Shown: positions 34,645 through 60,700 of the stretch, one piece after another
Layout: every line of letters starts with the position of its first letter
Numbering within the stretch: position 1 is the first letter of the stretch
DNA from: Pocillopora verrucosa
Taxonomy: Eukaryota > Cnidaria > Anthozoa > Scleractinia > Pocilloporidae
NCBI RefSeq assembly: GCF_036669915.1
Contig: NC_089325.1
Span: 9,961,231-10,025,230, forward strand
Direction of reading: 5' to 3'
DNA length: 64,000 nucleotides
Notes under the pieces: model-generated
The model's database searches: none
What the model was told of the DNA's origin: nothing
What the model saw: the letters and a program-made list of their open reading frames with translations, nothing else
Translations under genes and position numbers: made by a program

Positions 34645-34648
34645 TTAA

Positions 34649-35249: not shown

Positions 35250-35317
35250 ATGATTCCACGATTCATCATTTCGCCATTCTTCTTGCCAACGTTGTTATGG
35301 CGGCAGTACAAGGTAAG
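35250..35317 (+). pseudogene. Orphan signal-peptide exon, frameshifted copy (unit 1)
   Basis: Homologue of the open exon at 56735-56798 in unit 4. ATG at 35250, then ATTCCACGATTC as in unit 4, but one T is missing in CATTTCGCC (CATTTTCGCC in unit 4), so the hydrophobic frame is lost before the donor (TACAAG/GTAAGC). The same deletion is seen in units 2 and 3. No downstream coding exon remains. Confidence 0.5.
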
Positions 35318-35587
35318 CAAGCTTTCAGCAAAAATTACACAGTTCATGAGGTCTCAAGTGTCTATGACACAACATTTTTTAGCGTCTTCTTGTTGATAGC
35401 TGTATTCAGAATTTAAAATAATCGACCTTAGCGCTAAGTGACTTTTCCTTGACCATTTTTTACGCATTGAAAGTATCCCATTCAACGTGCGGCTCAAACG
35501 ATCAAGCATGTTACACAGCTGTGACGGCAGAAAACTGTGAAGACATGTCGGCAACTATGGTAGTAAAGGAAAAATAAAGAGGAGAGG

Positions 35588-35806
35588 ACGAACGTATTGC
35601 GTGGCAGGAGCGCCAAATGATGTAAGCTACAGGAATAATACATATACACTGGGGTTATTCTATACACTACTTTCCAAAGGATGTAGCTATACGGCCAAAA
35701 TGGACGCATTTCGATCGTCGACATCGGGGACATTTTACTCTTCAAAGTCCGCGTCGGCCTTATACTCCATCTCGGCTTCGAAAATGGCTGTTACAAAGGG
35801 TAACCA
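35588..35806 (+). pseudogene. Decayed THAP-like zinc-finger fragment (unit 1)
   Basis: The frame reads TYCVAGAPNDVSYRNNTYTL, as in the THAP start (Y-C-V-A-G). In sister copies the next part reads HYFPKD and PKWT, matching the THAP xHxFPkD..kW block. Here frameshifts break it, and a later frame shows FEN/GCYK remnants of the terminal HF block. The second zinc cysteine is not present. Either a host THAP gene or a P/Kolobok-type transposase fragment captured in the tandem unit. Confidence 0.5.
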
Positions 35807-36262
35807 ACCCTAGATAATAATACCGAAAAAAACTGGAGAAGTGTAAGAACGTATCTTAATAAACACTCTGATATATCGCATAACATTTACGTCGCATCGT
35901 AATTCCTTCCATATTCCTGTCCTTTATTGCATTCCACTGTACTGCTACCGTAACTCGCTACAGCTGGAGAAAGGCTCCAAATCTTTACTAAGAATTGCAA
36001 ATAATATAACTTAAGTCTAAAACGGTTTTCAGCCGGGGAAAGTTTCCAAGTCTTCACTAAAAATTACACATAATATAACTAAAAGTCCACAACGTTTTAT
36101 GCTCACTCGAGCTCTTGATCAATGACTGATCTTGAGCCCAAAAATTCTCACCCTAACAAGCTTTTTTAAAAAAATATTAAGCAGTTTTTTCAATCAACTT
36201 TAAAACAGCAATCTAGTGCTGATTGTTTCTTTTAACCAAACACGACAGATTGTGTGCATTAC
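35807..36262. other. Non-coding spacer of unit 1
   Basis: Contains two similar AT-rich segments: CTGGAGAAAGGCTCCAAATC and CGGGGAAAGTTTCCAAGTC, each followed by TTCACTAA or TTACTAAG and AATATAACTTAAG/AATATAACTAAAAG. Repeated in units 3 and 4; deleted in unit 2. Probably the 3' flank of the patatin gene copies. Confidence 0.5.
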
Positions 36263-38700: not shown

Positions 38701-41019
38701 ATGATTTTCCAGTATTTCATTTTGAATGCTATTCTCGCTTCACTTACGATAGCATCAGTGGGTAAGAGATCTCCATCTCGTCATCTTGAATAAAGAAGAT
38801 GGGAGAAGCGCATTACAACTTATTGTACAAAAAGTTGTTTTTCAAGAATATTTATGTAGTTGTTGAACCTTTTGAAGACGTTAATTTAAGACGTTTTGAG
38901 TTGTTCTAGAACTGTCGATGAGGGGCTAAAACTATCATATGAAATGCTGACTCCCACTCATCGCTAATTACAAACGTTATATTTTGTTCTTATCATCGTT
39001 TCAGACCATCAAGCGCCGGTTTTTACGTATTGCCCAAAGTGCATCACAATGAAAGAAATCACAGAGCATGAGACCCGCGTTGACTGGTCTAGACCTAAAG
39101 CAACTGACGATTCTGGTGAGGAGCCCGAAATAATATGCAGCAGGCCAAGTGGAGACTTATTCCCTGTTCCCAGTACAACTGAAGTTGTTTGTACGGCGAG
39201 AGATTCCGCTGGTAATAGAGCCACTTGTAGCTTCAGGATCACTCTAAAACGTAAGCTGAAGCTCTTGCATTTGAATAAACAATTTCTCAAGATGATCTAA
39301 TTATGTAAAAGAAAAGGTTAGAATTTGGAAGTAACAGTTGATTGCGTGCTTTCGTTGTCCAGGTGAAAGTATTCCCGATAAGGGTGTTCTCGGTAACAAT
39401 AGCTGACAACGAGAAGCTTAGCTGAAGTCTAATAGTAACCCTTGACTCTAATGATGGTTTCTGCTTACGATGTCATAACATCAATCACCGTTGCCAACAG
39501 CAGTTCTTTTTAGGTTTACTCGAACCCAGGCCATTAGAATTTAAGATCAACAGGTTCAGTTTATACTGAAATATATAAGAGAGAAAACCACTTTTGTGCA
39601 GCATTATGCTGCCTGCTATCGAAGTATGAGTTATACCTTGACTAACCGAAAAATCTAAAATTCGACATCTTTACTACATTTTATATCTGTTAATTATGTC
39701 TACAATTCGAAAATAGAAGGTTAAGAAAATACGAAATTTCTACTTACTGGACTGGCAGGGCGGCATTTTAAAGGTCGGCGTCTTCTTTGCTACAATGATT
39801 TTATATTTTTTCTATCTTTTGTTGTCAACAGGAAAGGAGTGCTCCATTTTCGATCCTCCTCAAAACGGAGCTTTGGCGTGCAACAAGATTGGTGTAGAAT
39901 ATGTTTGCGCTGCGATGTGTCAAAATGACTTCGACTTCACTTTCAACCCCCCTTTACTGTACTTCTGTTCAAGTGGCCAATGGAATTTTTATGGACTCCC
40001 CAGCTTCCCGTACAGTACACAACTTCCGTGGCCTAATTGCACAAGTAAGTTTGTTGCCAAAGGACTGACCTGACGTTTCTGGGGTATTTTAAAACCCTTT
40101 GAATTGATAAACGTGGAAGTATGAACAAGAAAAGGTTATCAAATGAGAAGGGGGAGATTCATGTCATAAGGAGCTGTACGCGGGTACAAAACCCAAAAAG
40201 TGTAAAATCTTTGAGAGTGTCAAGAAGCCCGGAGAATGAGTAATATTTTTACAAAAAAATAGGGTATTACTATTACTAATTCAAGCCATATATTCACAAC
40301 AGAATCCCCTGTCTATATTTCCGCTCTCAATATGAAATATCTTAGGGACAAATTTTACTCAAGGGATATAAAAAACGAGTCGAATATGAATCATGCTATA
40401 TAAAGTAAGGTTAAAGTTTTGGATCCTAGACTGGAGAAACTGCTACACATTTTGGTTGTGCACCCCAGTCCTCCAAGAATCGGCTGTAAACAACACTAAG
40501 GCTCACTTGTTCGATGTATCAACAATTTTCAGGGATTGTCAATTCATTAAGAAACACTGAAAAAACATATTCAATAAAAACAATGTCAAAATAAACATGA
40601 CTGTTGAAGCACCTCTCCTAAATAAGTCAAAGCAGTTTCTATCAGATGCCTGATGACAAAAAGCATACACAAAATATATGTATTGCTTTGTTTGCTTCTC
40701 CACAAAATAACAAGGTATCCCTTCATTCTGAAAGTTAATATACTACCAATGTTTTCGGAAATGATAACAGCTACAGAGTCAATTTCACTTCAATCTCTTT
40801 CCTCCTTGTTTATTTGCAGGGACAGCAAATCCATCCACATTGAAGTTATATAATCTCCCTGGTTATTTCTTTGACGGTGACATCAACAATCCCAATGTCC
40901 TGCAAAGCGTTAAAGTAAATTTCATAAATTTGGCAACCTCGCCCTACATCCTTCCGTTTTTTTGTCAAGAGAAACCGGACGAGTGCAACGTTAAAACAGT
41001 TGAGGTGTATCATAAATAG
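38701..41019 (+). CDS. HYR-sushi secreted protein, copy 2, 239 aa
   Basis: Exons 38701-38761, 39005-39250, 39832-40044, 40820-41019, with the same borders, phases and length as copy 1. The signal peptide is identical to copy 1. The HYR exon differs from copy 1 by four bases (two replacements, I to T and H to R). The sushi exon differs at about ten residues, concentrated in the loop after QWNF (YGLPSFPYS against FGIPGLPYN). The C-terminal module has SPYILPFFCQEKP. The 3' UTR intron and AATAAA (41487-41492) are conserved. The gene lies downstream of a GPCR 3 fragment and converges on patatin pseudo-exons. Its closest relative by position and flank is copy 4. Confidence 0.85.
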
Positions 41020-43343
41020 GGCCGCTCAAAGTAAGAAAAATAACATGCACATATATGTTACAACCCCTTTAAGGAGAAGTATGTAGTAATCTGAATGGTT
41101 ACGTTACGCTTCATATATTCCGTGATAAAAAGTGAGGGAAGGAGTGGCCGTAGACTGTGCGTTTGTAAACTAAAGAAAATAAAAACATTGACCTGTCTTG
41201 TTGTTGACTGTTTTGAACGACTGATAGATTTAAACTATAACAGTTATCTTGTTCGTTTTTCGATTTCTATGCGAGGTAAGTGATGTCAAACAATTGTTAG
41301 CCAAACATTTCAGCTCAAAATTCCGCGACGAAAGAGATTTAAGATGAAATGACGGATAACTTGGAAAAAGACGTTTGGGAGAACTAACCAAAATAAAATT
41401 GAAAATAATCTCTGATTTTACTTTCTATTTACAGGCTCACAAGAAAACTTGGGTAATTTCAAGAACACGACCTCCTGTCCATGTTCAATAAAGATAAATC
41501 TAATGTCAAATGGAGAATCTGTACTTTATTTACATATATGATATCAGTCGTCCAGTCTAAAAGAGAGCGGATTGATGACGAGCGCGACCAAGTCGCTATG
41601 GGTTTTTAGCATTTCTTTTGATTGGTTAAGAATGACACAAGTTTCCTGGACTAGTTACAGAGGGAAGTTGAGCAGAAGCAATGTTATCGTGAATTACTTT
41701 CGACATTCACTATAAATTACTCTGTCGTAATTAACCCCTGAGTGACCAAGACAGAATTTTCCTTTCAAAATAGGGGAAATAATGATTAAGCAGACGAGTC
41801 ATGCATGAGAAGAGGAATAAATATCAATTAGGGAATCACTCCTTGATCCAATATCAAAGTCTTCGAACTAACAATCAAAGAATTGTATGAAAAAAAGTGA
41901 GGAGAATTACTAATTAAATTTTGGGAGTGAATGGGTCCTCCAAATTTTCCTTACAGTTAGAATAACTGAAATCACAGAGGACGGAAATATTGAAATTCCT
42001 TTAAAAAAGGTCCTTACACGAGAAATCTTTTTTTAAAATGAAGAATAATACATATGAAATGTATATAATATTATCATCAGATGGTTTAGTCAAACACAAG
42101 CGATCGGCTGAGAAAATAACGTCAAAGCCGAGAAGTTATTTTGATTTATGAATCAATCATTAGTACTTATAAACAGGGCTGCAAAAATTTGGGATTGAAT
42201 GCTCCAAAAAAAATTTCACAGACTTACGTACCAATTTTGAACATTAAACTTATCTATCAAACTATCAGCCTGTGCCAAAAGGGTAAATAGTCCTCTCATA
42301 CAAAAACCATCGTAACATCTAAAGGGATTTCTGACCAAACGATATGGGCCTGAAAATATTTTTCGTGGCATATTTGTAGCCTCAAAATTTACTTCTAGGC
42401 GAATTATTATCTTAACTTGGCTAAAACAATGTGTTGATGAGAAGTTACTCATATGACGGAACCGTTGAAAACGTTTTAATGATTTAAACATCAGTCAAAT
42501 ATCAGTCAAATCCTCCTCTCGCACGTGCATGACTTACAGGAATTTTACTTAGCTTTAGATTGGAAATACGTGATTCGTGCGTTGGCTAAAACAGTGTGTT
42601 GATGAGGAGTTACTCATATGACGGAACCGTTGAAAAAGTTTTAATGATTTAAACATCAGTCAAATATCAGTCAAATCCTCCTCTCGCACATGCATGACTT
42701 ACAGGAATTTTACTTAGCTTTAGATTGGAAATACGTGATTTGTGCGTTGTTCTTTTCAAGAAAATATGATGCCACGAAAATAGGGAAATAGTTATTTAGT
42801 CTTCCGGGACTTTTGTTCTTTTCCAAATGCAAGTTGAAAATTATTTGTTAGGAAATAAAGTTCACTCATCCGACGAAGAACTGTTTGTAATATTGCACCT
42901 TTGACAAAGACAGCTGCAAAAAGTCTGATTTCTCGGTCTCTTGTAAGAACTTTCCACAGCTAAACTGCAACTCCTATTGGTCAAATCTTTTAGAAGAGTT
43001 ACATCTCCATTAAGATGATTCCACGATTCATCATTTCGCCATTCTTCTTGCCAACGTTGTTATACGGGCAGTACAAGGTAAGCAAGCTTTCAGCAAGAAT
43101 TACACAGTTTATGAGGTCTTAAGTGTCTATGACACAACATTTTTTAGCGTCTTCTTGTTGATAGCTGTATTCAGAATTTAAAATAATCGACCTTAGCGCC
43201 AAGTGACTTTTCATTGACCATTGAAAGTATCCCATTCAACGTGCGGCTCAAACGATCAAGCATGTTACACAGCTGTGACGGCAGAAAACTGTGAAGACAT
43301 GTCGGCAACTATGGTAGTAAAGGAGAAATCAAGAGGAGAGCAC
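41020..43343. other. 3' UTR and duplicated spacer of unit 2
   Basis: Spliced 3' UTR with AATAAA at 41487; the empty transposon site TTAA at 42412-42415; the 165-bp doublet at about 42417-42745; and a frameshifted orphan signal-peptide exon near 43015-43078. No coding gene. Confidence 0.6.
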
Positions 43344-43555
43344 GAACGTATTGCGTGGCAGGAGCGCCAAATGATGTAAGCTACAGGAATAATACACATA
43401 CACTGGGTTTTTCTATATACTACTTTCCAAAGGATGTAGCTATACGGCCATAATGGACGCATTTCGATCGTCGACATCGGGGAGATTTTACTCTTCAAAG
43501 TCGTCGGCCTTATACTCCGTCTTGGCTTCGAAGACGGCTGTTACAAAGGGTAACC
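43344..43555 (+). pseudogene. Decayed THAP-like fragment (unit 2)
   Basis: Starts at ERTYCVAGAPNDVSYRNN like the other copies, then loses frame at the THTLG position. Later frames show TAIRP(K/*) and FEDGCYKG remnants (TTCGAAGACGGCTGTTACAA at about 43525-43550). An in-frame stop is present in the PKW block (CCATAATGG). Non-functional. Confidence 0.5.
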
Positions 43556-43672
43556 AACCCTAGATAATAATACCGAAAAAAATGGAGAAGTATAAGAACG
43601 CATCTTAAAAAAACACTCTGATATATCGCATAACATTTACGTTGCATGGTAATTCTTTCCATAAACCTGTCC

Positions 43673-45157
43673 TGGAAATGCTCCACAAATCCCCTCTGGA
43701 AAACACCTACAAGGGTCACCATGACAACACTCGCAGCAGCAGAACGTCAGCCTGTCGACCTCCTTGGCATGAAGCTCTGGTCCAGTTCCCCGATGCTCCT
43801 CGTCAAGATTTTCGTTAATGTCACTTAATGCCTCCTTCCACGTCATAGGTTACGTCATCTTAATTCCCTTATTAGGGTGTCTAGGAGCAATGAAAAGCAC
43901 CCCTGCCTCACCGACCACGTGGTCGCCGTCTCCTTCTGGATCTTTGTCAAAGTATTGGACTTTGAACCTTGGGATAATAAAATCTTTCCTTTAAATATTG
44001 GTAGACTGTCAGACTTGTAAGACAAGCAAGCTTCTTTCCGGATTTAACAGTAGGTTTTACGAATTGCCTAAGAGTGCGTTTCGATGGTGGGATGTTGGGC
44101 AAAACTTAACAAAGGCGCAGAGGAACAATTTGAAAAAGTGTCAGGTGGGGGGGACTTATCATAAACTAAGCCAAACGCATATCTTAGGAGCCAATTGGAA
44201 CTCAAACGTACAAACTGTTTGAAGCGCGGAAAGAGGCAAGGGACTTAGCAGGTCACCATTGTTTTTAGTTTTGCATCTGAATGGCCGGAGGAATGGCGCG
44301 CACATTCCTCGCCAAGAGCAGAGGGGTAGTAAAACACCAGTCCCAATCACTGTTAAGTCTCAATGAAAAAAAAACCGCTTGACTACATTTTGCTGATTGG
44401 TCCAAAAGCTTTGTTCAGCTAATACTAAGTATTTCCAACTAGTTTGAAATGAGACGTTTGTGCGCAGCATCTCAAATGAAAGCGGTTAAACATCACTTCA
44501 TATTACTAAGTTTTCGTGCAACATATAACACAGCTGAACCTAAAAACTAAGTCACCAACCTTTAACTCCTAGATTGGTTTCCGGGACTTCTCTCCACAAA
44601 GTTTATTTGAATATCTTCATTGATGTCTCGACCATCCATTCCTGTAAATGAACATCTCAGTTTTTTCCTGGCCATTTCGAGCGCGTTCATCAAGGTGTTA
44701 CCAAACGCTTGTTCTGAAGCCGCACATCCACCATAAACAGAGATGATCCTTTTCAGTCTGAGTCTCAGAAGAGGCAAGATTCCAAGGTTTTCAACATGGC
44801 CGCCATCACTCAGACGCAACACAGGAGGAGGACTGGGCCCAAGGTTTAGTATCCCGAGTGTTTTCCCAACATAACTGTGATGTAAGGATGTAAGGTATGT
44901 GGACAGCAAAATATCTGACGAAAAAAAAAACAGCACTCATCACAAAACGACTTTCCTCTCCATAACAAATTTTGAAAATCTTCATCGAAACTTTTCTAGA
45001 ACTCAGAGGCTTAGGGTCAAAGCGCACTAAAAGCAAGTGCATATGTGCGTGCCTTTCGCTCATTAGGGAACAGGACCATAGACGTCTTTAGATGCGGATG
45101 GTACCCAGACGTTGAAAGTTCTTCTTGCTGTCGCTTATTACGAGTAATTTGTTACCA
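43673..45157 (-). pseudogene. Partial patatin-like gene copy (unit 2)
   Basis: Exon 6 copy (about 43973-43673) lacks its 3' third: homology stops at CATTTCCA, where the sequence jumps to the THAP spacer. Exon 5 copy (about 44925-44572) has a small duplication (GATGTAAGGATGTAAGG) at about 44880-44897 that shifts the frame. About 45003-45157 is the exon 4 copy, cut at its upstream end where it meets HYR copy 3. Its WKEALSDINENLDE block matches the intact gene, unlike units 1 and 3, which carry a 12-bp shorter version. Confidence 0.8.
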
Positions 45158-47134
45158 AGGTGATCACAATGAAAGAAATCACAGAGCCTCAGACCCGCGT
45201 TGACTGGTCTAGACCTAAAGCAATTGACGATTCTGGTGAGGAGCCCCGAATAATATGCAGCAGGCCAAGTGGAGACTTATTCCCTGTTCCCAGTACAACT
45301 GAAGTTGTTTGTACGGCGACAGATTCCGCTGGTAATAGAGCCACTTGTAGCTTCAGGATCACTCTAAAACGTAAGCTGAAGCTCTTGCATTTTAATAAAC
45401 AATTTCTCAAGATGATCTAATTAAGTAAAAGAAAAGGTTAGAATTTGGAAGTAACAGTTGATTGCGTGCTTTCGTTGTCCAGGTGAAAGTATTCCCGATA
45501 TGTCTGTTCTCGGTAACAATAGCTGACAACGAGAAGCTTAGCTGAAGTCTAATAGTAACCCTTGACTCTAATGATGGTTTCTGCTAACGATGTCATAACA
45601 TCAATCACCGTTCCCAACATCAGTCCTTTTTAGGTTTACTCGAACCCAGGCCATTAGAATTCATGATCAACAGATTCAGTAACTGAAAATATATGAGAGA
45701 AAAACCGCTTTTGTGCAGCATTATGCTGCCTGCTATCGAAGTATGAGTTACACCTTGACTAACCAAAAAATCTAAAATTCGACATCTTTACTATATTTTA
45801 CATCCATCAATTATGTCTACAATTCGAAAATAGAAGGTTAAGAAAATACGAAATTTCTACTTACTGGACTGGAAGGGCGACATTTTAAAGTCGGCGTCTT
45901 CTTTGCTACAATGATTTTATATTTTTTCTTTCTTTTGTTGTCAACAGGAAAGGAGTGTCCCATGTTCGATCCTCCTCAAAACGGAGCTCTGGCGTGCAAC
46001 AAGATTGGTGTAGAATATGTTTGCGCTGCGATGTGCCAAAATGACTTCGACTTCACTTTCAACCCCCCTTTACTGTACTTCTGTTCAAGTGGCCAATGGA
46101 ATTTTTTTGGAATCGGCTTACCGTACAGCACACAACTTCCATGGCCTAATTGCTCAAGTAAGTTTGTTGCCAAAGGACTGACCTGACGTTTCCGGGGTAT
46201 TTTAAAAACCCTTTAAATTGATAAACGTAGAAGTACGAACAAGAAAAGGTTATCAGCTGAGAAGGGGGAGATTCATATCATAAAGAGTTGTACGCGGGTA
46301 CAAAACCCAAAAAGTGCAAAATCTTTGAGAGTGTCAAGAAGCCCGGAGAATGAGTAATATTTTTACAAAAAAAATAGGGTATTACTATTACTAATTCAAG
46401 TCATATATTCACAACAGAATCCCCTGTCTATATTTCCGCTCTCAATATGAAATATCTTAGGGACAAATTTTACTCAAGGGATATAAAAATAGGGGTCGAA
46501 TATGAATCATGTTATATAAAGTAAGGTTAAAGTCTTGGATCCTAGACTGGAGAAACTGCTACACATTTTGGTTGTGCACCCCAGTCCTCCAAGAATCGGC
46601 TGTAAACAACACTAAGGCTCACTTGTTCGATGTATCAACAATTTTCAGGGATTGTCAATTCATTAAGAAACACTGAAAAAACATATTCAATAAAAACAAT
46701 GTTAAAATACCATGACTGTTTAAGCACCTCTCCTAAATAAGTCAAAGCAGTTTCTATCAGATGCCTGATGACAAAAAGCATACACAAAATATATGTATTG
46801 CTTTGTTTGCTTCTCCACAAAATAACAAGGTATCCCTTCATTCTGAAAGTGAATATACTACCAAGGTTTTCGGAAATGATAACAGCTACAGAGTCAATTT
46901 CACTTCAATTTCTTTCCTCCTTGTTTATTTGCAGGGACAGCAAATCCATCCATATTGAAGTTATATAATCTCCCTGGTTATTTCTTTGATGGTGACATCA
47001 ACGATCCTAATGTCCTGCAAAGCGTTAAAGTAAATTTCATGAATTTGGCAACCTCGCCCTACATCCCTCCGTTTTTTTGTAAACTGAAACCGGACGAGTG
47101 CAACGTTAAAACAGTTGAGGTGTATCATAAATAG
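45158..47134 (+). pseudogene. HYR-sushi gene copy 3, 5'-truncated
   Basis: Exon 1 (signal peptide) and about the first 50 bp of exon 2 are missing. Homology begins within exon 2 at about 45160, directly fused to patatin exon 4 antisense sequence. Exon 2 remnant to 45370, exon 3 at 45948-46157 (one codon shorter: FFGIGLPYS), exon 4 at 46935-47134 with stop, and AATAAA at 47602. All remaining splice sites are intact. An ATG at 45169 could start a protein without a signal peptide, so secretion is not expected. Against copy 2 the exon 2 remnant has six base changes, all replacements (H-P, E-Q, T-I, E-R, R-T). Confidence 0.75.
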
Positions 47135-49465
47135 GGCCGCTCAAAGTAAGAAAAATAACATGCACATATATGTTACAACCCCTTTAAGGAGAAGTATGTA
47201 GTAATCTGAATGGTTACGTTACGCTTCATATGTATTCCGTGATAAAAAGTGAGGGAAGGAGTGGCCGTAGAGTGTGCGTTTGTAAACTAAAGAAAATAAA
47301 AACATTGACCTGTCTTGTTGTTGACTGTTTTGAACGACTGATAGATTTAAACTATAACAGTTATCTTGTTCGTTTTTCGATTTCTATGCGAGGTAAGTGA
47401 TGTTAAACAATTGTTAGCCAAACATTTAAGCTCAAAATTCCGCGACGAAAGAGATTTAAGATGAAATGACGGATAACTTTGAAAAAGACGTTTGGGAGAA
47501 CTAACCAAAATAAATTGAAAATAATCTCTCATTTTACTTCTATTTACAGGCTCACAGGAAAACTTGGGTAATTTCAAGAACACGACCTCCTGTCCATGTT
47601 CAATAAAGATAAAACTTATGTCAAATGGAGAATCTGTACTTTATTTACATATATGATATCAGTCGTCCAGTCTAAAAGAGAGCGGATTGATGACGAGAGT
47701 GACCAAGTCGCTATGGGTTTTAGCATTTCTTTTGATTGGTTAAGAATGACACAAGTTTCCTGGACTAGTTACAGAGGGAAGTGAAGCAGAAGCAATGTTA
47801 TCGTGAATTACTTTCGACGTTCACTATAAATTACTCTGTCGTAATTAACCCCTTAGTGACCAAGACAGAATTCTCCTTTCAAAATTGAGGAAATAATGAT
47901 TAAGCAGACGAGTCATGCATGAGAAGAGGAATATCAACTAGGGAATCACTCCTTGATCCAATGTCAAAGTTTTCGAACTAACAATGAAAGAATTGTATGA
48001 AAAACAGCAAGGAGAATTACTAATTGGATTTTGGGAGTGAATGGGTCCACCAAATTTTCCTTACAGTTAGAATAACTGAAGTCACAAAGGACGGAAATAT
48101 TGAAATTCATTTAAAAAAGGTCCTTACATGAGAAATCTTTTTTCAAAATGAAGAATCATACATATGAAATTTAAATAATATTATCATCAGATGGTTTAGT
48201 CAAACACAAGCGATCGGCTGAGAAAATAACGTCGAAGCCGAGAAGTTAATCTGATTTATGAATCAATCATTAGTACTTATAAACAGGGCTGGAAATATTT
48301 GGGATTGAATGCTCCAAAAAAAATTTCACAGACTTACGTACCAATTTTGAACATTAAACTTATCTATCAAACTATCAGCCTGTGCCAAAAGGGTAAATAG
48401 TCCTCTCATACAAAAACCATCGTAACATCTAAAGGGATTTCTGACCAAACGATATGGGCCTGAAAATATTTTTCGTGGCATATTTGTAGCCTCAAAATTT
48501 ACTTCTAGGCGATTTATTATCTTAACTTGGCTAAACCAATGTGTTGATGAGGAGTTACTCATATGACGGAACCGTTGAAAACGTTTTAATGATTTAAACA
48601 TCAGTCAAATATCAGTCAAATCCTCCTCTCGCACGTGCATGACTTACAGGAATTTTACTTAGCTTTAGATTGGAAATACGTGATTCGTGCGTTGGCTAAA
48701 ACAATGTGTTGATGAGGAGTTACTCATATGACGGAACCGTTGAAAACGTTTTAATGATTTAAACATCAGTCAAATATCAATCAAATCCTCCTCTCGCACA
48801 TGCATGACTTACAGGAATTTTACTTAGCTTTAGATTGGAAATACGTAATTTGTGCGTTGTTCTTTTCAAGAAAATATGATGCCACGAAAATAGGGAAATA
48901 GTTATTTAGTTTTCCGGGACTTTTGTTCTTTTCCAAATGCAAGTTGAAAATTATTTGTTACAAAATAAAGTTCACTCATCCGACGAAGAACTGTTTGTAA
49001 TATTGCACCTTTGACAAAGACAGCTGGAAAAAGTCTGATTTCTCGGTCTCTTTTAAGAACTTTCCACAGCTAACAAACTGCAACTCCTATTGGTCAAATC
49101 TTTTAGAAGAGTTAAATCTCCATAAAGATGATTCCACGATTCATCATTTCGCCATTCTTCTTGCCAACGTTGTTATGCGGGCAGTACAAGGTAAGCAAGC
49201 TTTCAGCAAGAATTATACAGTTTATGAGGTCTTAAGTGTCTATGACACAACATTTTTTAGCGTCTTCTTGTTGATAGCTGTATTCAGAATTTAAAATAAT
49301 CGAACTTAGCGCCAAGTGACTTTTCCTTGACCATTTTATACGCATTGAAAGTATCCTATTCAACGTGCGGCTCAAACGATCAAGCATGTTACACAGCTGT
49401 GACGGCAGAAAACTGTGAAGACATGTCGGCAACTATGGTAGTAAAGGAGAAATCAAGAGGAGAGG
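47135..49465. other. 3' UTR and duplicated spacer of unit 3
   Basis: Spliced 3' UTR with AATAAA at 47602-47607, empty transposon site TTAA at 48522-48525, the 165-bp doublet at about 48527-48850, and a frameshifted orphan signal-peptide exon at about 49130-49191. No gene. Confidence 0.6.
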
Positions 49466-49678
49466 ACGAACGTATTGCGTGGCAGGAGCGCCAAATGATG
49501 TAAGCTACAGGAATAATACACATACACTAGGTTATTCTATACACTACTTTCCAAAGGATGTAGCTTACGGCCAAAATGGACGCATTTCGATCGTCGACAT
49601 CGGGGACATTTTACTCTTCAAAGTCGTCGGCCTTATACTCCATCTCGGCTTCGAAGATGTTACAAAGGGTAACCAACC
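49466..49678 (+). pseudogene. Decayed THAP-like fragment (unit 3)
   Basis: Reads TYCVAGAPNDVSYRNNTHTL, then GYSIHYFPKDVAYGQNGR: the HYFPKD block is in frame, then a small deletion (GTAGCTTACGG for GTAGCTATACGG) shifts the rest. Terminal block broken. The second zinc cysteine is absent. Same origin as the unit 1, 2 and 4 copies. Confidence 0.5.
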
Positions 49679-50138
49679 CTTGATAATAATACCGAAAAAA
49701 AATAGAGAAGTGTAAGAACGCATCTTAAAAAAACACTCTGATATATCGCATAACGTTTACATTAACGTCGCATCGTAATTCCTTCTATAATCCTGTCCTT
49801 TATTGCATTCCACTGTACTGCTACCATAACTCGCTACAGCTGGAGAAAGGCTCCAAATCTTTACTAAGAATTGCAAATAATATAACTTAAGTCTAAAACG
49901 GTTTTCAGCCGGGAAAAGTTTCCAAGCCTTCACTAAAAATTTCACATAATATAACTAAAAGTCCACAACGTTTTATGCTCACTCGAGCTCTTGATCAATG
50001 ACTGATCTTGAGCCCAAAAATTCTCACCCTAGCAAGCTTTTTTAAAAAAATATTAAGCAGTTTTTTCAATCAACTTTAAAACAGCAATCTAGTGCTGGTT
50101 GTTTCTTTTAACCAAACACCACAGATTGTGTGCATTAC

Positions 50139-51822
50139 TTAGATCTTTGTTTCGTCGACATTCTCTACACGAATGTGATCTACATTGATCGCTTGAGCTG
50201 ATTGTTCCCTCAGAAATTCAGCGGCTTTTGCCTCCAAACATGCGCGATAGCCTTCTCTATGATAAGCAGCAAACATTACTGGCGTGTAGAATTGATTCGA
50301 AGTAGAATGCTGCGGAAATGCTCCACAAATCCCCTCTGAAAAACCCCTACAAGCGTCACCATGACAACACTCGCAGCAACAGAACGTCAGCCTGTCGACC
50401 TCCTTGGCATGAAGCTCTGGTCCAGTTCCCCGATGCCCCTCATCAAGATTCTCCTTCCAAGCCTCCTTCCACGTCATAGGTTGCGTCATCTTAATTCCCT
50501 TATTAGGGTGTCTAGGAGCAATGAAAAGCACCTCTGCCTCACCGACCATGTGGTCGCCGTCTCCTTCTGGATCTCTGTCAAAGTATTGGACTTTGAACCT
50601 TGGGATAATAAAATCTTTCCTTTAAATATTAATAGACTGTCTGACTTTTAAGACGAGCAAGCTTCTTTCCAGATTTAACTGTAGGTTTTACGAATTGCCT
50701 AGAGTGTTTCTTTAATCGTGCAAACTTAAGAGTGCGTTTCCGATTGTGGGATGTTGGACAAAACTTAACAAAGGTGCGGAGGAACAATTTGAAAAAGTGT
50801 TAGGTGGGGGGGACTTATCGTAAACTAAGCCAAACGCATATCTTAGGAGCCAATTGGAACTCAAACGTACAAACTGTTTGAAGCGCGGAAAGAGGCAAGG
50901 GACCTAGTAGGTCGCCATTGTTTTTAGTTTTGCATCTGAATGGCCGGAGGAATGGCGTGCACATTCCTCGCCAAGAGCAGAGGGGTAGTAAAACACCAGT
51001 CCCAGTCACTGTTAAGTCTCAATGAAAAAAACCGCTTGACTACATTTTGCGGATTGGTCCAAAAACTTTGTTCAGCTAATACTAAGTATTTCCAACTAAA
51101 TTGAAATGAGACGTTTGTGCGCAGCACCTTAAATGAAAGCGGTTAAACAACACTTCATATTAGTGAGTTTTCGTGCAACATACAAGTTAGCTGAACCTAA
51201 AAAAAAACTAAGTCACAAACCTGTAACTCCTAGGTTGGTTTCCGGGACTTCTCTCCACAAAGTTTATTCGAATGTCTTCATTGATGTCTCGACCATCCAT
51301 TCCTGTAAATGAACATCTCAGTTTTTTCCTGGCCATTTCGAGCGCGTTCATCAAGGTGTTACAAAACGCTTGTTCTGAAGCCGCACATCCACCATAAACA
51401 GAGATGATCCTTTTCAGTCTGAGTCTCAGAAGAGGCAAGATTCCAAGGTTTTCAACATGACCACCATCATTTAGACGCAACACAGGAGGGGGACTGGGCC
51501 CAAGGTTTAGTATCCCGAGTGTTTACCGAACATAACTGATGTAAGGTATGTGGACAGCAAAACATCTGACGAAAAAAAAACAGCACTGATCACAAAACGA
51601 CTTTCCTCTCCATAAAACATTTGGAAAATTTTCATCGAAACTTTTCTAGAAATCAGATGCGACAAATCTTTCACCTGTGGTGTGTATGGCTTTTAGTGTA
51701 AAAGGCTAGCCAGTATTAGCTGTTCAACTTATTGGTTAGGGTCAAAGCGCACTAAAAGCAAGTGTATACGTGCGTGCCTTTCGGTCATCACTGCGCCAGC
51801 AGTGTTCGTTCCCTCCTTTTGA
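50139..51822 (-). pseudogene. Partial patatin-like gene copy (unit 3), last exon still open
   Basis: Exon 6 copy (about 50596-50139) is open throughout, from KVQYFDKDPEGDGDHMVGEA to ENVDETKI and stop, so this exon alone is not damaged. The exon 5 copy (about 51567-51220) carries TAA at 51525-51523, the same mutation as unit 1. Exon 4 is deleted and exon 3 is reduced to a scrap near 51795-51818. Offset from unit 1 is 13,875-13,876 bp along this whole stretch, showing they are copies from one recent dimeric duplication. Confidence 0.8.
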
Positions 51823-52590: not shown

Positions 52591-54910
52591 ATGATTTTCC
52601 AGTATTTCATTTTGAATGCTCTTCTCGCTTCGCTTACGATAGCATCAGTGGGTAAGAGATCTCCATCTCGTCATCTTGAATAAAGAAGATGGGAGAAGTG
52701 CATTACAACTTATTGTACAAAAAGTTGTTTTTCAAGAATATTTATTTAGTTGTTGAACCTTATGAAGACGTTAATTTAAGACGTTTTGAGTTGCTTTAGA
52801 ACTGTCGACGAGGGGCTAAAACTATCATATGAAATGCTGACTCCCACTCATCGCTAATTACAAACGTTATATTTTGTTCTTAACATCGTTTCAGACCATC
52901 AAGCGCCGGTTTTTACGTATTGCCCAAAGTGCATCACAATGAAAGAAATCACAGAGCCTGAGACCCGCGTTCACTGGTCTGCACCTACAGCAACTGACGA
53001 TTCTGGTGTGAAGCCCAACATACAATGCAACAAGCAAAATGGAGACATATTCAGTGTTCCCAGTACAACTGAAGTTGTTTGTACGGCAAGCGATTCCGCT
53101 GGTAATAGAGCCACTTGTAGCTTCAGGATCACTCTAAAACGTAAGCTGAAGCTCTTGCATTTGAATAAACAATTTCTCAAGATGATCTAATTAAGTAAAA
53201 GAAAAGGTTAGAATTTGGAAGTAACAGTTGATTGCGTCCTTTCGTTGTCCAGGTGAAAGTATTCCCGATAAGGGTGTTCTCAGTAACAATAGCTGACAAC
53301 GAGAAGCTTAGCTGAAGTCTAATAGTAACCCTTGACTCTAATGATGGTTTCTGCTTACGATGTCATAACATCAATCACCGTTGCCAACAGCAGTCCTTTT
53401 TAGGTTTACTCGAACCCAGGCCATTAGAATTCATGATCAACAGATTCAGTAACTGAAAATATATGAGAGAAAAACCGCTTTTGTGCAGCATTATGCTGCC
53501 TGCTATCGAAGTATGAGTTACACCTTGACTAACCGAAAAATCTAAAATTTGACATCTTTACTATATTTTACATCTATTAATTATGTCTGCAATTCGAAAA
53601 TAGAAGGTTAAGAAAATACGAAATTTCTACTTACTGGGCTGGTAGGGCGGCATTTTAAAGGTCGGCGTCTTCTTTGCTACAATGATTTTATATTTTTTCT
53701 TTCTATTGTTGTCAACAGGAAAGGAGTGTCCCATGTTCGATCCTCCTCAAAACGGAGCTCTGGCGTGCAACAAGATTGGTGTAGAATATCTTTGCGCTGC
53801 GATGTGCCAAAATGACTTCGACTTCACTTTCAACCCCCCTTTACTGTACTACTGTTCAAGTGGCCAATGGAATTTTTATGGACTCTCCAGCTTACCGTAC
53901 AGTACACAACTTCCGTGGCCTAATTGCACAAGTAAGTTTGTTTCCAAAGGATTGACCTGACGTTTCCGGGGTATTTTGAAACCCTTTGAATTGATAAACG
54001 TGGAAGTACGAACAAGAAAAGGTTATCAGCTGAGAAGGGGGAGATTCATATCATAAGGAGCTGTACGCGGGTACAAAACCCAAAAAGTGCAAAATCTTTG
54101 AGAGTGTCAAGAAGCCCGGAGAATGAGTAATATTTTTACAAAAAAAATAGGGTATTACTATTACTAATTCAAGTCATATATTCACAACAGAATCCCCTAT
54201 CTATATTTCCGCTCTCAATATGAAATATCTTAGGGACAAATTTTACTTAAGGGATATAAAAAACGAGTCAAATATGAATCATGTTATATAAAGTAAGGTT
54301 AAAGTCTTGGATCTTAGACTGGAGAAACAGTCTGCTACACATTTTGGTTGTGCACCCCGGTCCTCCAAGAATCGGCTGTAAACAACACTAAGGCTCACTT
54401 GTTCGATGTATCAACAATTTTCAGGGATTGTCAATTCATTAAGAAAAACTGAAAAAACATATTCAATAAAAACAATGTTAAAATACCATGACTGTTGAAG
54501 CACCTCTCCTAAATAAGTCAAAGCAGTTTCTATCAGATGCCTGATGACAAAAAGCATACACAAAATATATGTATTGCTTTGTTTGCTTCTCCACAAAATA
54601 ACAAGGTATCCCTTCATTCTGAAAGTGAATATACTACCAATGTTTTCGGAAATGATAATAGCTACAGAGTCAATTTCACTTCAATTTCTTTCCTCCTTGT
54701 TTATTTGCAGGGACAGCAAATCCATCCATATTGAAGTTAAATAATCTCTCTGGTTATTTCTTTGATGGTGACATCAACGATCCCAATGTCCTGCAAAGCG
54801 TTAAACTAAATTTCATGAATTTGGCAACCTCGCCCTACATCCCTCCGTTTTTTTGCAAAGAGAAACCGGACGAGTGCAACGTTAATACAGTTGACGTGTA
54901 TCATAAATAG
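52591..54910 (+). CDS. HYR-sushi secreted protein, copy 4, 239 aa, diverged HYR domain
   Basis: Exons 52591-52651, 52895-53140, 53719-53931, 54711-54910; 720 nt, all borders intact; AATAAA at 55380. Signal peptide intact (one I to L change). The HYR exon keeps all structural marks (YCPKC, ATDDSG, cysteines, DSAGNRATCSF), but between 52958 and 53091 fifteen codons differ from copy 2 by amino acid and only one silently: for example HWSAPTATDDSGVKPNIQCN against DWSRPKATDDSGEEPEIICS. The sushi and C-terminal modules also carry mainly replacements (KLNNLSG, VKLNF, NTVDVYHK). Framework kept with surface changes suggests a functional, rapidly changing secreted protein. Confidence 0.87.
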
Positions 54911-56734
54911 GGCCGCTCAAAGTAAGAAAAATAACATGCACATATATGTTACAACCCCTTTAAGGAGAAGTATGTAGTAATCTGAATGGTTACGTTACGC
55001 TTCATATGTATTCCGTGATAAAAAGTGAGGGAAGAAGTGGCCGTAGAAGGTGCGTTTGTAAACTAAAGAAAATAAATACATTGACCTGTCTTGTTGTTGA
55101 CTGTTTTGAACGACTGATAGATTTGAACTATAACAATTATCTTATTCGTTTTTCGATTTCTATGCGAGGTAAATGATGTCAAACAATTGTTAGCCAAACA
55201 TTTCAGCTCAAAATTCCGCGACGAAAGAGATTTAAGATGAAATGACGGATAACTTGGAAAAAGACGTTTGGGAGAACTAACCAAAATAAAATTGAAAATA
55301 ATCTCTGATTTTACTTTCTATTTACAGGCTCACAGGAAAACTTGGGAAATTTCAAGAACACGACCTCCTGTCCATGTTCAATAAAGATAAAACTTATGTC
55401 AAATGGAGAATCTGTACTTTATTTACATATATGATATCAGTCGTCCAGTCTAAAAGAGAGCGGATTGATGACGAGAGTGACCAAGTCGCTATGGGTTTTA
55501 GCATTTCTTTTGATTGGTTAAGAATGACACAAGTTTCCTGGACTAGTTACAGAGGGAAGTGAAGCCGAAACAATGTTATCGTGAATTACTTTCGACGTTC
55601 ACTATAAATTACTCTGTCGTAATTAACCCCTGAGTGACCAAGACAGAATTCTCCTTTCAAAATTGAGGAAATAATGATTAAGCAGACGAGTCATGCATGA
55701 GAAGAGGAATAAATATCAATTAGGGAATCACTCCTTGATCCAATATCAAAGTCTTCGAACTAACAATGAAAGAATTGTATGAAAAACAGTGAGGAGAATT
55801 TTCAATTAAATCTTGGGTCCACTAAATTTTCCTTACAGTTAGAATAACTGAAGTCACAGAGGACGGAAATATTGAAACTCCCTTAAAAAAGGCCCTTAAA
55901 CGAAAAATTTTTTTTCAAAATGAAGAATAATACATATGAAATGTAAATAAATATTATCATCAGATGGTTTAGTCAAACACAAGCGATCGGCTGAGAAAAT
56001 AACGTCAAAGCCAGGAAGTTAATTTGATTTATGAATCAATCATTAGTACTTATAAACAGGGCTGCAAAAATTTGGGATTGAAAGCTGCAAGAAAAATTTT
56101 TTTACAGACTTACGTACAAATTTTGAGCATTAAACTTATCTATCAACTATCAACCTGTGCGAAAAGGGTAAATAGTCCTCTCATACAAAAACCATCGTAA
56201 CATCAAAATAGATTTCTGACTAACCGATATGGGCCTAAAAATATTTTTCGTGGCATATTTGTAGCCTCAAAATTTGCTTCTAGGAAATTTATTATCTTGA
56301 ATTGGCGAAAACAATGTGTTGATGAGGAGTAACTCATATGACGTGCCGTTGAAAAAGTTTTAATGATTTAAACATCAGTCAAATATCAGTCAAATCCTCC
56401 TCTCGCACATGCATGAGTTACAGGAATTTTACATAGCCTTAGATTGGAAATACGAGATTCGTGCGTTGTTCTTTTTTATAAAACATGTTGCCACGAAAAC
56501 AGGGAAATAGTTAGATAGTTTTCAGACTTTTGTTCTTTTCCAAATGCGAGTTAATTATTATTTGTTAGGAAATGAAGTTTACTCATTCGACGAGGAACTG
56601 TTTGCAATATTGCACCTTTGACAAAGACAGCTGTAAAAAGTGTGATTTCTTGGTCTCTCGTGAGAAATTTCCACAGCTAACAGACCGCAACTCTTATTCG
56701 TAAAATCTTTCAGAAGAGTCACATCTCCATAAAG
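54911..56734. other. 3' UTR and duplicated spacer of unit 4
   Basis: Spliced 3' UTR with AATAAA at 55380-55385. The site homologous to the transposon target reads TTGA at about 56297 and is empty. Only one copy of the 165-bp block is present. More diverged from the other units than they are from each other past about 55800. No gene. Confidence 0.6.
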
Positions 56735-56798
56735 ATGATTCCACGATTCCTCATTTTCGCCATTCTTCTTGCCAACATTATTATGGCGGCAGTATTGG
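56735..56798 (+). other. Orphan signal-peptide exon, open only in unit 4
   Basis: ATG at 56735 opens 21 codons plus one base (phase 1) to a TTGG/GTGAGC donor: MIPRFLIFAILLANIIMAAV, then LG. This is a good signal peptide and the same phase and size as HYR exon 1 (61 nt). The sister copies in units 1-3 lost one T and are frameshifted. No matching downstream exon was found before the THAP fragment; an acceptor at about 57027 would add a short frame ending at the stop in TTCCAAAGGATATAG. It may be the remains of a second secreted-protein gene that was part of the ancestral unit. Confidence 0.4.
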
Positions 56799-57053
56799 GT
56801 GAGCAAGATTTCAGCAGAATTATGAATGAGGTCTTTAAGTGCCTATGACATCAATTTTTTTTTTTTTTGCGTCTTCTGGTTGATAGCTGTATTTAGAATT
56901 TGAAATGATCGACCTTAGCGCCAAGCGAGTTCTCCTTGACCATTTTTTACGCATTGAAAGTACGATTTCGCGGCCAAAAAGGGTTCCCATTCAACCCGCG
57001 GCTTAAACGATCATGCATGTTACACAGCTGTGACGGCAGAAAACTGTGAAGAG

Positions 57054-57280
57054 GACGAACTTATTGCGTGGCCGGAGCGTCAAATGATGTTAGCCATAAG
57101 AATAATACACATACACTGGGTTTTTCTATACACTACTTTCCAAAGGATATAGCTGTACAGCCAAAATGGACGCGTTTCGATGGTCAACATCGGGGAGATT
57201 TTACTCTTCAAAGTCGTCGGCCTTATGCTCCGTCTCGGCTTCGAAAACGACTGTTACAAAGGGTAACCAACCTTAGATAA
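57054..57280 (+). pseudogene. THAP-like zinc-finger fragment (unit 4), longest open copy
   Basis: The most complete copy: TYCVAGASNDVSHKNNTHTL, then GFSIHYFPKDIAVQPKWTRF, matching the THAP pattern Y-C-V-A ... H-x-FPKD ... kW. After GDFTLQS the frame departs from the family; a +1 frame supplies the expected SSALCSV and a later frame an FE(N)DCYKG-like block, so the domain has at least two frameshifts. The second Cys ligand is missing. No downstream exon. Not expected to bind zinc. Confidence 0.55.
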
Positions 57281-57715
57281 TGATACCGAAAAAAACTGGA
57301 GAAGGCGCAAGAACGTATCTTAAAAAAAACACTAATATATCGTATAACGTTTACGTTAGGCTTCCATATTCCTGTCCTTTATTGCATTCCACTGTACTGC
57401 TACCGTAACTCGCTACAGCTGGAGAAAGGCTCCAAATCTTTACTAAGTATTGCAAATAATATAACTTAAGTCTAAAACGTTTTCAGCCGGGAAAAGTTTC
57501 CAAATCTTCGCTAAAAATTTCACATAACATTACTTTAAGTCTACAACGTTTTTTGCTCACTCGAGCTCTTGATCAATGACTGATCTTGAGCCCAAAAATT
57601 CTCACCCTAACAAGCCTTTTTAAAAAAATATTGTGCATTTTTTTCATCAACTTTAAAACAGAAATCTAGTGCTGATTGTTTCTTTCAACCAAACACCACA
57701 AATCGTGTGTATTAC
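57281..57715. other. 3' flank of the patatin-like gene
   Basis: Convergent spacer between the THAP fragment (+) and the patatin gene (-), with the same paired GGAGAAAGGCTCCAAATC / GGGAAAAGTTTCCAAATC blocks as in units 1 and 3. It should contain the patatin 3' UTR; no clear poly(A) signal was picked. Confidence 0.45.
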
Positions 57716-60700
57716 TTAGATATTTGTTTCGTCAACATTCTCTACACGAATGTGCACTTGAGCTGATTGTTCGCTCAGAAATTCAGTGGCTTTTGCCTCC
57801 AAACATGCGCGATAGCCTTCTCTATGATAAGCAGCAAACATTGCTGGCGTGTAGAATTGATTCGAAGTAGAATGCTGCGGAAATGCTCCACAAATCCCCT
57901 CTGAAAAACCTCTACAAGCGTCACCATGACAAGACTCGCAGCAACAGAACGTCAGCCTGTCAACCTCCTTAGCATGAAGCTCTGGTCCAGTTCCCCAATG
58001 GCCCTCGTCAAGATTTTCGTTAATGTCACTTAACGCCTCCTTCCACGTCATAGGTTGCGTCATCTTAATTCCCTTATTGGGGTGTCTAGGAGCGATGAAA
58101 AGTACCTCTGCCTCACCGACCATGTGGTCGCCGTCCCCTTCTGGATCTTTGTCAAAGTATTGGACTTTGAACCTTAGGACAATAAAATCTTTCCTTTAAA
58201 TATTGGCAGACTGTCAGACTTGTAAGACGAGGAAGCTTCTTTCCAGATTTAACTGTGGGTTTTATGAATTGCCTAATGCGTTTCTTTAAAGGTGCAAAAT
58301 TAAGAGTGCGTTTCGATCGTGGGATTTTGGGCAAAACTCAACAGAAGGGCAGTGGAACATTTTGAAAAAGTGTCGGGTGTGGGGGAGGACTTGCCATAAG
58401 CTGAGCCAAACGCATATCTTATTCACAAGCTCCAGTCAGAAAAAAGGAAACAATACAAGGAGCCAATTAGAACTCAGATCAAAACGTACAAACTGTTTGA
58501 AGCGCGGAAAGAGTCAAGGGACCTGGCCAGTCGCCATTGTTTTTAGTTTTGCATCTGAGTGACCGAAGGAATGGCGCGCACATTCCTTGCCAAGAGCAGA
58601 GGGGTGGTAAAACACAGGTCCCAGTCATTGTTAAGTCTCAATGGAAAATCGCTTGAGTACATTTTGCTGATTGGTCCAAAAACTTTGTTCAGCTAACACC
58701 AAGTATTTCTAGTTTGAAATGAGAGGCTTGCGTGCAGTACCTCACATAAAAGCGGTTAAACAACATTTTAAATTAGTGAGTTTTCGCGCAACATACAACA
58801 CAGCTGAACCTTAAAAACTAAGTCACCAACCTGTAACTCCTAGGTTGGTTTCCGGGACTTCTCTCCACAAAGTTTATTCGAATGTCTTCATTGATGTCTC
58901 GACCATCCATTCCTGTAAATGAACATCTTAGTTTTTTCCTGGCCATTTCGAGCGCGTTCATCAAGGTGTTACAAAACGCTTGTTCTGAAGCCGCACATCC
59001 ACCATAAACAGAGATGATCCTTTTCAGTCTGAGTCTCAGAAGAGGCAAGATTCCAAGGTTTTCAACATGGCCGCCATCACTCAGACGCAATACAGGAGGA
59101 GGACTGGGCCCAAGGTTTAGTATCCCGATTGTTTTCCGAACATAACTGATGTAAGGTATGTGGACAGCAAAATATCTGACAAAAAAAACAGTATGGCTTT
59201 TAGTGTAAAATGCTGGCCAATATTGGCTGTTTAACTTATTGGTTAGGGTCAAAGCGCACTAAAAGCAAGTGCATACCTGCGTGCCTTTCGGTCATTAGGG
59301 AACTGGAGCATAGACGTCTTTAGACGCGGATGGTACCTAGACGTTGAAAGTTCTTCTTGCTGTCGCTTATTACGAGTAATTTGTCGGAAGAGTTTATTTT
59401 AAAATGCTACAACAAAAGATTATAAAATTCTTTTTTTTGGTACCAAGGCGCGCCAGCAGTAGACGTTCCCTCCTTTTATTCACCATCCCCATCTTAAATG
59501 CCAGGGTTGCGGACATGCATATCACCATGAGCAGGGGCGTTCTTACAATATAGGGAAGGATTTCAAAGAAACGCGCACACACAGGAATAGTAATACCCTC
59601 GAATAAATACTCCAAAGGTTGTCCTTCCTCGACGAGAGTGAAACCCTTAGAGGCGAACATTAAATTACTGTTAGTGACGATAAAAAAGGCATATTGAAAC
59701 CTGGCCATCCTCTCCACCCGGCTGGGATTAGCAGATCCCGTAGGTATCAAGGCGATTACGGTCAACAGCAACAGAAGCAAGAAGAAACAAAATACTCCAA
59801 AGGTGAGATAGTCGTCACCGCCAAAATTATGGTAGAAAACGTATGATATCAAAAGTGGAGAGACTCTGAATATCTCGATGAAGTACGGAAGAATCTGAAA
59901 AAAAAAACGACGTACCACATTAAACGTTTAATTCTGCTGTCCTAAGAATCAAGGACACTGAAGTATGTGTCAAAATATGATATTACCCCACGAAACTTCG
60001 CTCATCGGTTATTGATTGTCCTGATTCTTTTTTCGGAAGAACAAAGTTATACCAACCTGAAGGCAAATATTGAGTTTCCTGACATGCCTCGGGTCGCTGA
60101 CAACAGAGTTACCCATAGCAATTCCCAAGGTGACTTTCAGGTCTTTAAACATCTCTTCACCTTCCAGGGCACCCATGTGATGATCAACAGCAGCAGCTGA
60201 CGTTGCCATGGCATCGGACAAGTAAATGTCCTCCGGCATAAGCTTGCCTTCTAACTCGCGCTCATGCGCAGGTCGATCCAGTCGTTCAATCCCTTGGGGG
60301 GACATGATAAGTGCTTCGTAGTCGGGTTCCGTGGAGGAGGTGGTGCGTCGCCATCGGTTGACCGCTGCATTGCTGATAAAGATAGGCTTGACGTTCTCAA
60401 GATCTTCCAAGGTCAGCGGGCGTTCAGGGTCGAGGTTAACACGCTGTTTGTGATCGAAATATGGGCAGCTGAGAAAAAAGTTGCGGAAGGAAATGCCGGC
60501 ACAACCACACAATCCTCGACTGGTTGGCGTGAACAAGGCTTTTTGTAGCCGCCACCTGCAACTCAAAGAAGATCAAACGGCGTATTTAGATCTAGAGTTA
60601 CATGCTCAATGGGCCAATTAAGGCCAACGCGATACAGACGCTTACTAAAACGCCCACGTGCCATCCCCATGCGCGCGAGATTGTTTACAAGGGCGCACGC

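What the first reader, a model, noticed from the sequence alone, without database searches (positions are those of the whole stretch)
52895..53140. HYR exon of the youngest gene pair differs by replacements, not silent changes, and more than its introns
Seen: comparing copy 2 (39005-39250) with copy 4 (52895-53140) by hand, 20 of 246 bases differ. They change 15 codons by amino acid and one silently. The neighbouring intron 2, which was copied in the same 13.88-kb event, differs at only about 2-3 percent by eye. Cysteines and the ATDDSG and DSAGN framework are untouched. Copy 3 against copy 2 gives six base changes in this exon, all replacements. The sushi loop after QWNF and the C-terminal module show the same bias (about 32 replaced codons to 6 silent over the whole protein, copies 2 and 4). 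Inference: diversifying selection on an exposed recognition face of a secreted protein, as in host-microbe or self/non-self recognition. Conversion from an unseen paralogue is the main alternative, but it should also bring silent changes.
Basis: partly seen in the sequence, partly recalled or inferred. Interest (0 to 1): 0.87.

Follow-up and report, generated by a model that had tools for sequence, protein, structure and literature searches.

The report
Fast-changing domain in duplicated secreted gene
One copy of a repeated animal gene for a small secreted protein has changed many amino acids in a single domain while its introns hardly changed, which most likely reflects selection for a new binding surface, although copying from an older relative is not ruled out.

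Summary
Copies 2 and 4 differ at 20/246 bases of the HYR exon (15 replaced codons, 1 silent); their introns differ by 2.9-4.2%. The excess is copy 4's: 18 copy-4-only differences in 134 bp, its strongest cluster. With the silent rate tied to introns, omega for copy 4 is 8.4 (LRT 37); with that rate free, 7.4 (p=0.0096, post hoc). Replaced-to-silent counts alone are weak: simulated neutral changes give at most one silent codon in 5-21% of runs.

Corrections: exons 3 and 4 show no significant excess; copy 3 lacks exon 1 and part of exon 2, so it is poor evidence; 'youngest pair' is doubtful because the copies are mosaics.

Best explanation: diversifying selection on part of the HYR surface (0.55). 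Main rival: a tract from an older copy (0.33); the neutral-donor model needs about 9% divergence, close to adjacent B4's 10%, and noncoding clusters exist too. Sea-urchin EBR1_5 is a precedent for selected HYR domains (PMC5521101, passage). Species, ligand and expression are unknown.

The parts
52591..52651 (+). Copy 4 exon 1: start codon and presumed signal peptide
   Evidence: signal peptide judged by eye, no predictor run
52895..53140 (+). Copy 4 exon 2: HYR domain, 246 nt, phase 1-1
   Evidence: PF02494, 52.4 bits against cut-off 21.7
52958..53091 (+). 134-bp core of exon 2 holding all 20 differences from copy 2, 18 of them copy-4-only (codons 42-86)
   Evidence: copy-2 coordinates 39068-39201 plus the offset 13890
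53719..53931 (+). Copy 4 exon 3: sushi-like module with 6 cysteines
   Evidence: no Pfam Sushi match at E<=1; end corrected to the GT donor
54711..54910 (+). Copy 4 exon 4: C-terminal module and stop codon
   Evidence: start corrected to the AG acceptor
38701..38761 (+). Copy 2 exon 1
39005..39250 (+). Copy 2 exon 2 (HYR)
39832..40044 (+). Copy 2 exon 3
   Evidence: end corrected to the GT donor
40820..41019 (+). Copy 2 exon 4
   Evidence: start corrected to the AG acceptor
28807..28867 (+). Copy 1 exon 1
29111..29356 (+). Copy 1 exon 2 (HYR), 4 differences from copy 2
29940..30152 (+). Copy 1 exon 3
   Evidence: end corrected as above
31039..31238 (+). Copy 1 exon 4
   Evidence: start corrected as above
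45155..45370 (+). Copy 3 exon 2 remnant; exon 1 and the first part of exon 2 are absent
45948..46157 (+). Copy 3 exon 3, 3-nt in-frame deletion
46935..47134 (+). Copy 3 exon 4
   Evidence: start corrected as above
56300..59384 (-). B4: 3' part of the patatin-like gene, which appears to continue to about 61875; 9.6-10.3% from the other B copies
   Evidence: gene extent inferred from open frames
34644..37785 (-). B1: copied fragment like the 3' part of the patatin-like gene
42411..45152 (-). B2: copied fragment like the 3' part of the patatin-like gene
48521..51660 (-). B3: copied fragment like the 3' part of the patatin-like gene

Best explanation
Shown: this is a four-unit tandem array of a four-exon gene encoding a 239-residue protein (presumed signal peptide, one HYR domain, a sushi-like six-cysteine module, a short C-terminal module); one of the four copies is truncated. 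In copy 4, codons 42-86 of the HYR exon carry a burst of amino-acid replacements against the other copies, while silent sites and flanking introns stay near background and the HYR framework is kept. Inferred: positive (diversifying) selection acted on the lineage separating copy 4 from copies 1-3 and altered one part of a beta-sandwich surface that binds a partner. The array would then supply variant forms of a secreted adhesion or recognition protein. The partner is unknown; gamete, microbe or other extracellular ligands are all open.
For: Three-taxon codon model (copies 1, 2, 4) with introns: omega(copy 4)=8.36, LRT 37.0 with the silent rate tied to introns; omega 7.41, silent-rate multiplier 1.13, LRT 6.72 (p=0.0096) with it free. 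It is the largest of 9 exon-by-branch tests (exons 2-4, three branches) in both settings. Equal-parameter models: in-situ selection lnL -3182.90, neutral donor -3186.25, constrained donor (one omega on all branches, fitted 0.81) -3190.05. Copy-4-only differences: 18/134 in the core against 6/243 in intron 1 and 5/576 in intron 2. Framework kept: copy 4 scores 56.0 bits on Pfam HYR, above copy 2 (53.7) and above 18 of 18 scanned random variants with 15 replacements each (22.7-52.7; 20 were generated, 2 not scanned). Substitutions are 7 transitions to 13 transversions, against 38:16 in introns (Fisher p=0.008). In the AF2 model, strand residues 47, 62, 64, 72 and 74 are replaced while 46, 63, 65 and 73 between or beside them are unchanged. 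Sites 62 and 86 also differ, to other residues, in truncated copy 3. Precedent: positively selected codons cluster in one HYR domain of sea-urchin EBR1_5.
Against: The free-rate test is post hoc; times 9 tests its p becomes about 0.09, and without the four double-hit codons the LRT falls to about 2.7 (lnL -3136.25 against -3137.62). Neutral simulations reach at most 1 silent codon in 5-21% of runs. Copy 1 against copy 4 gives only dN/dS 2.4, p=0.12. Two noncoding stretches of the same pair reach 15 differences per 134 columns, and at width 246 a noncoding window (23) exceeds exon 2 (21). Copy 4's 3' tail has extra copy-4-only differences, so older sequence may exist in this copy. There is no outgroup, so direction is unknown. 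The structure model is of moderate to low confidence. No expression, species or polymorphism data.
Confidence: 0.55

Rival explanations
1. Gene conversion, or a spared island: copy 4 exon 2 holds a short tract from an older, about 9-10% diverged copy, either converted in from an unseen paralogue or left behind when the rest of copy 4 was homogenised. No positive selection within this array is needed.
For: The neutral-donor model fits a multiplier of 6.4 on a copy-4 branch of about 0.014, which is about 9%; this is close to B4's 9.6-10.3%, and copy 4's 3' tail is also unusually divergent. Local clusters exist in noncoding sequence too. Mosaic patterns occur elsewhere: copies 1 and 2 differ by 1.6% in exon 2 but 7.8% in intron 2, and six sites in exon 3 group copies 1 and 3 against 2 and 4. 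The block edges are sharp.
Against: 3.35 log units worse than selection for a neutral donor and 7.15 worse for a constrained one (1.36 and 4.17 without double-hit codons). Flanking intron and exon ends show no donor trace. All 18 scanned random variants lose HYR score while copy 4 gains. The transversion excess is not seen in B4 (170 transitions to 106 transversions against B1). No further copy was found in the window; the rest of the genome could not be searched.
Confidence: 0.33
2. Relaxed constraint: copy 4's HYR exon drifts after duplication.
For: Redundant copies; omega near 1.1-1.2 for exons 3 and 4 on the other branches.
Against: Relaxation cannot push the replacement rate above the intron rate (LRT 37); reading frame, cysteines and HYR score are intact.
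Confidence: 0.04
3. Assembly artefact: the tandem units are partly unmerged haplotypes or a chimera, so the comparison is allelic or mixed.
For: Several stretches of the units are only about 2-5% apart, which high heterozygosity could also give; no reads available.
Against: Units differ in breakpoints and spacing and one is truncated; even then the replacement excess would need explaining.
Confidence: 0.08

Closest known systems
EBR1_5 putative egg receptor, strongylocentrotid sea urchins (PMC5521101; one passage seen)
   Same: A protein with HYR domains in which positive selection is restricted to HYR domains, with seven codons clustered in a 76-residue stretch of one.
   Different: EBR1_5 has 1243 residues, seven HYR domains, a SEA domain and a transmembrane domain; here Pfam finds one HYR domain and nothing else at E<=1 in 239 residues; no transmembrane predictor was run. 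The sea-urchin result is across species, this one across tandem copies.
Sushi/HYR extracellular proteins such as SRPX, SRPX2 and SVEP1 (architecture recalled, not tested)
   Same: HYR next to sushi-type modules.
   Different: Much shorter; the sushi-like module is not recognised by Pfam at E<=1.
Tandemly amplified gene families of corals, many linked to innate immunity (PMC10236652; passages seen)
   Same: Tandem birth-and-death duplication; the paper also reports amplified GPCR-like genes, and GPCR frames lie upstream here.
   Different: 'HYR' and 'sushi' occur 0 times in its main text, and the species of this window is not established.

Membership tests
HYR domain (PF02494) | Match above the curated profile cut-off | tested here: met
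   50.2 bits (copy 2) and 52.4 bits (copy 4) against 21.7, profile 1-80 of 81
Sushi/CCP domain (PF00084, accession recalled) | Match to the Sushi profile | tested here: not met
   No match at E<=1 for copies 2 and 4; only the cysteine/NG/W pattern resembles sushi, by eye; AF2 model pLDDT 56
Egg bindin receptor (EBR1_5-type) | Several HYR domains in a large egg-surface protein | tested here: not met
   One HYR stretch in 239 residues; expression not testable
Gene under diversifying selection | Replacement rate above the neutral (intron) rate | tested here: met
   LRT 37 with the silent rate tied to introns
Gene under diversifying selection | dN/dS above 1 with its own silent rate, robust to double hits and multiple tests | tested here: inconclusive
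   p=0.0096 post hoc; about 0.1 after either correction (from the likelihoods)
Self/non-self or immune recognition locus | High allelic variation, and binding to a partner | not testable with these tools
   One sequence only; no genome held for this window

The most novel reading that the evidence does not exclude
In a tandem array of small secreted single-HYR proteins, most sequence is kept alike by duplication and conversion while one face of the HYR exon is driven apart by selection, making HYR domains a diversifying recognition module, perhaps outside echinoderms, for gametes, microbes or self.
Probability: 0.3. Interest if true: 0.7.

Novelty: new member of a known kind. Interest (0 to 1): 0.45.

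Why it matters
If real, it is a compact, testable case of an extracellular domain diversifying between neighbouring gene copies, with introns as an internal neutral yardstick. It would add a within-genome, single-HYR case to the sea-urchin precedent for selected HYR domains and give a starting point for finding the ligand.

Tried and rejected
Copy 3 as support for selection: rejected, because it lacks exon 1 and the start of exon 2. Replaced-to-silent count alone as proof: rejected. Same bias in exons 3 and 4: not supported. Relatives: none confirmed in viral contigs or genome contigs, each searched once with the copy-2 protein; no further copy in the window (best other hit E=0.72). The solved-structure search found nothing at E<=1 for the copy-2 protein and 8 weak tenascin/Tencon hits (E 0.22-0.4) for the HYR alignment. 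Foldseek gave no match at E<=0.001 among 562 at E<=10; the best was an S-layer protein SlpX domain at E=0.11, with PKD and cadherin domains lower down. The sushi-module model was too poor to use (pLDDT 56), so no fold search was run on it. Controls in the patatin-like gene: pN/pS 0.30 for one exon of B3 against B4; a second open frame, whose ends may include noncoding bases, gave 0.92 (B2 against B4) and 0.73 (B3 against B4, coordinates guessed by me). The model called 'constrained donor' forces one omega on all branches and fits 0.81, so it is only a mild constraint. The clustering probability printed is mislabelled (20 sites were used where the label says 18) and is not used. tRNA scan: none in the window. 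Paper searches touching HYR, hyalin, coral, cnidarian or positive selection. Seen as passages only: PMC5521101, PMC11212366, PMC10236652; other papers were seen only in search listings.

Full report
What is there. The right half of the window holds a tandem array made of a HYR gene (A, + strand) and a copied fragment like the 3' part of a patatin-like gene (B, - strand). A copies start near 28.4, 38.3, 45.1 and 52.2 kb; B copies near 34.6, 42.4, 48.5 and 56.3 kb. B4 appears to belong to a longer patatin-like gene that runs to about 61.9 kb (the patatin match has 26 bits, just under the curated cut-off of 27.7). Upstream lie three single open frames of rhodopsin-type GPCRs. No genome is held and no relative was confirmed in the two collections scanned, so the species is unknown; a cnidarian such as a coral or anemone is my guess from gene content.

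Gene A has four exons. Exon 1 ends in phase 1, and exons 2 (246 nt) and 3 (213 nt) are symmetrical phase 1-1 modules. Copies 1, 2 and 4 are open throughout. Corrected for the GT donor of exon 3 and the AG acceptor of exon 4, the coding sequence is 720 nt including the stop, giving 239 residues. Residues 20-100 match Pfam HYR. Exon 3 has six cysteines and looks sushi-like, but no Sushi match appears at E<=1. Copy 3 has lost exon 1 and the start of exon 2 at a junction with B2 and is probably not functional.

Observation. Copies 2 and 4 differ at 20/246 positions in exon 2 (15 replaced codons, 1 silent). The introns differ at 7/243, 24/578 and 23/774. All 20 lie within 134 bp (codons 42-86), the most divergent 134-column window in the collinear pair (7910 columns). 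Eighteen of them are unique to copy 4 among the four copies, one is shared with copy 3, and at one site three states occur. The event lies on the path between copy 4 and the others; without an outgroup the direction cannot be told. Noncoding windows at 41.9-42.5 kb reach 15 differences per 134 columns, and at width 246 the top window is noncoding (23 against 21 for exon 2), so exon 2 is not the only cluster.

Tests. Nei-Gojobori for copies 2 and 4, exon 2: dN 0.111, dS 0.016, ratio 6.8, binomial p 0.024. Copies 1 and 4: ratio 2.4, p 0.12. Copies 3 and 4: ratio 3.5, p 0.044. Copies 1 and 2: ratio 0.33 (all). Simulated neutral changes give at most one silent codon in 5-10% of runs for 20 changes over the whole exon, 8-14% over codons 42-86, and 8-21% for 16 events (double hits counted once), depending on the transition bias. 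The silent count alone therefore does not exclude a neutral donor. A three-taxon codon model with introns as yardstick gives omega 8.36 for copy 4 (LRT 37.0); using only intron 1 and the near part of intron 2 gives omega 7.2 (LRT 25.3). With a free silent rate omega is 7.41 and p 0.0096; for all exons together the free-rate test gives p 0.094. Over nine exon-by-branch combinations only copy 4 exon 2 exceeds 3.84 with omega above 1. Dropping the four codons with two changes leaves omega 4.9 in the tied model, and the free-rate LRT falls to about 2.7.

Conversion or selection. With equal numbers of parameters, selection in place beats a neutral donor by 3.35 log units and a constrained donor (one omega on all branches, fitted 0.81) by 7.15; without double-hit codons by 1.36 and 4.17. 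The neutral-donor fit implies about 9% divergence, close to B4 (9.6-10.3%), and copy 4's 3' tail carries excess private differences. A diverged older lineage therefore probably existed next door, and this rival is serious. Against a decayed donor: copy 4's HYR score is 2.3 bits above copy 2, while all 18 scanned random variants with the same number of replaced codons fall below copy 2 (22.7-52.7 against 53.7; 18 of 20 generated). Against a normally constrained donor: too few silent changes. What fits best is selection in place, or a donor that had itself been diversified by selection.

Structure. AlphaFold2 on the four HYR exons gives a beta fold with mean pLDDT 67 and a poor N-terminus. In its strands 45-47, 62-65 and 72-74, residues 47, 62, 64, 72 and 74 are replaced in copy 4, while 46, 63, 65 (Cys) and 73 (Phe) are not; 45 changes only in copy 1. 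Ten further sites changed in copy 4 lie outside those strands: 42, 50, 52, 59, 60, 66, 67, 68 and 69 between strands, and 86 at the end of strand 77-86. Strand 92-101 has no replacement. Net charge by K+R minus D+E moves from -2 (copy 2) to 0 (copy 4).

Known context. Sea-urchin EBR1_5, a putative egg receptor, has positive selection restricted to three HYR domains, with seven codons clustered in 76 residues of one (PMC5521101, passage). Hyalin genes are over-represented among introgressed genes in sea urchins, and the authors suggest a possible link to defence (PMC11212366, passages). Coral genomes have many tandem families linked to innate immunity (PMC10236652, passages). So selected HYR domains are not new; a tandem single-HYR array showing the pattern within one genome is a new example if confirmed. 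I found no paper on such an array in the listings.

Verdict. Diversifying selection is the favoured but not proven cause (0.55), a tract from an older copy is the main alternative (0.33), and the function as a recognition molecule is inference.

Noticed in passing
45011-45370: Copy 3 of the HYR gene is 5'-truncated at a junction with the B2 fragment, leaving exons 3 and 4 with open frames but no start exon.
   Followed up: partly
39988-40044 and the same stretch in the other copies: Six sites in exon 3 group copies 1 and 3 against copies 2 and 4, a mosaic sign of conversion or duplication order.
   Followed up: partly
55800-56300 (copy-2 equivalent about 41900-42415): Copy 4's 3' tail has more private differences than most of its body, next to the 10%-diverged B4, suggesting a duplication or conversion boundary.
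   Followed up: partly
8201-9155: A 24-bp minisatellite of about 40 copies, with long open frames on both strands.
   Followed up: no
20300-27393: Three single open frames of rhodopsin-family GPCRs in a row on the + strand.
   Followed up: partly
3814-5919: A roughly 1-kb tandem duplication at about 82% identity.
   Followed up: no
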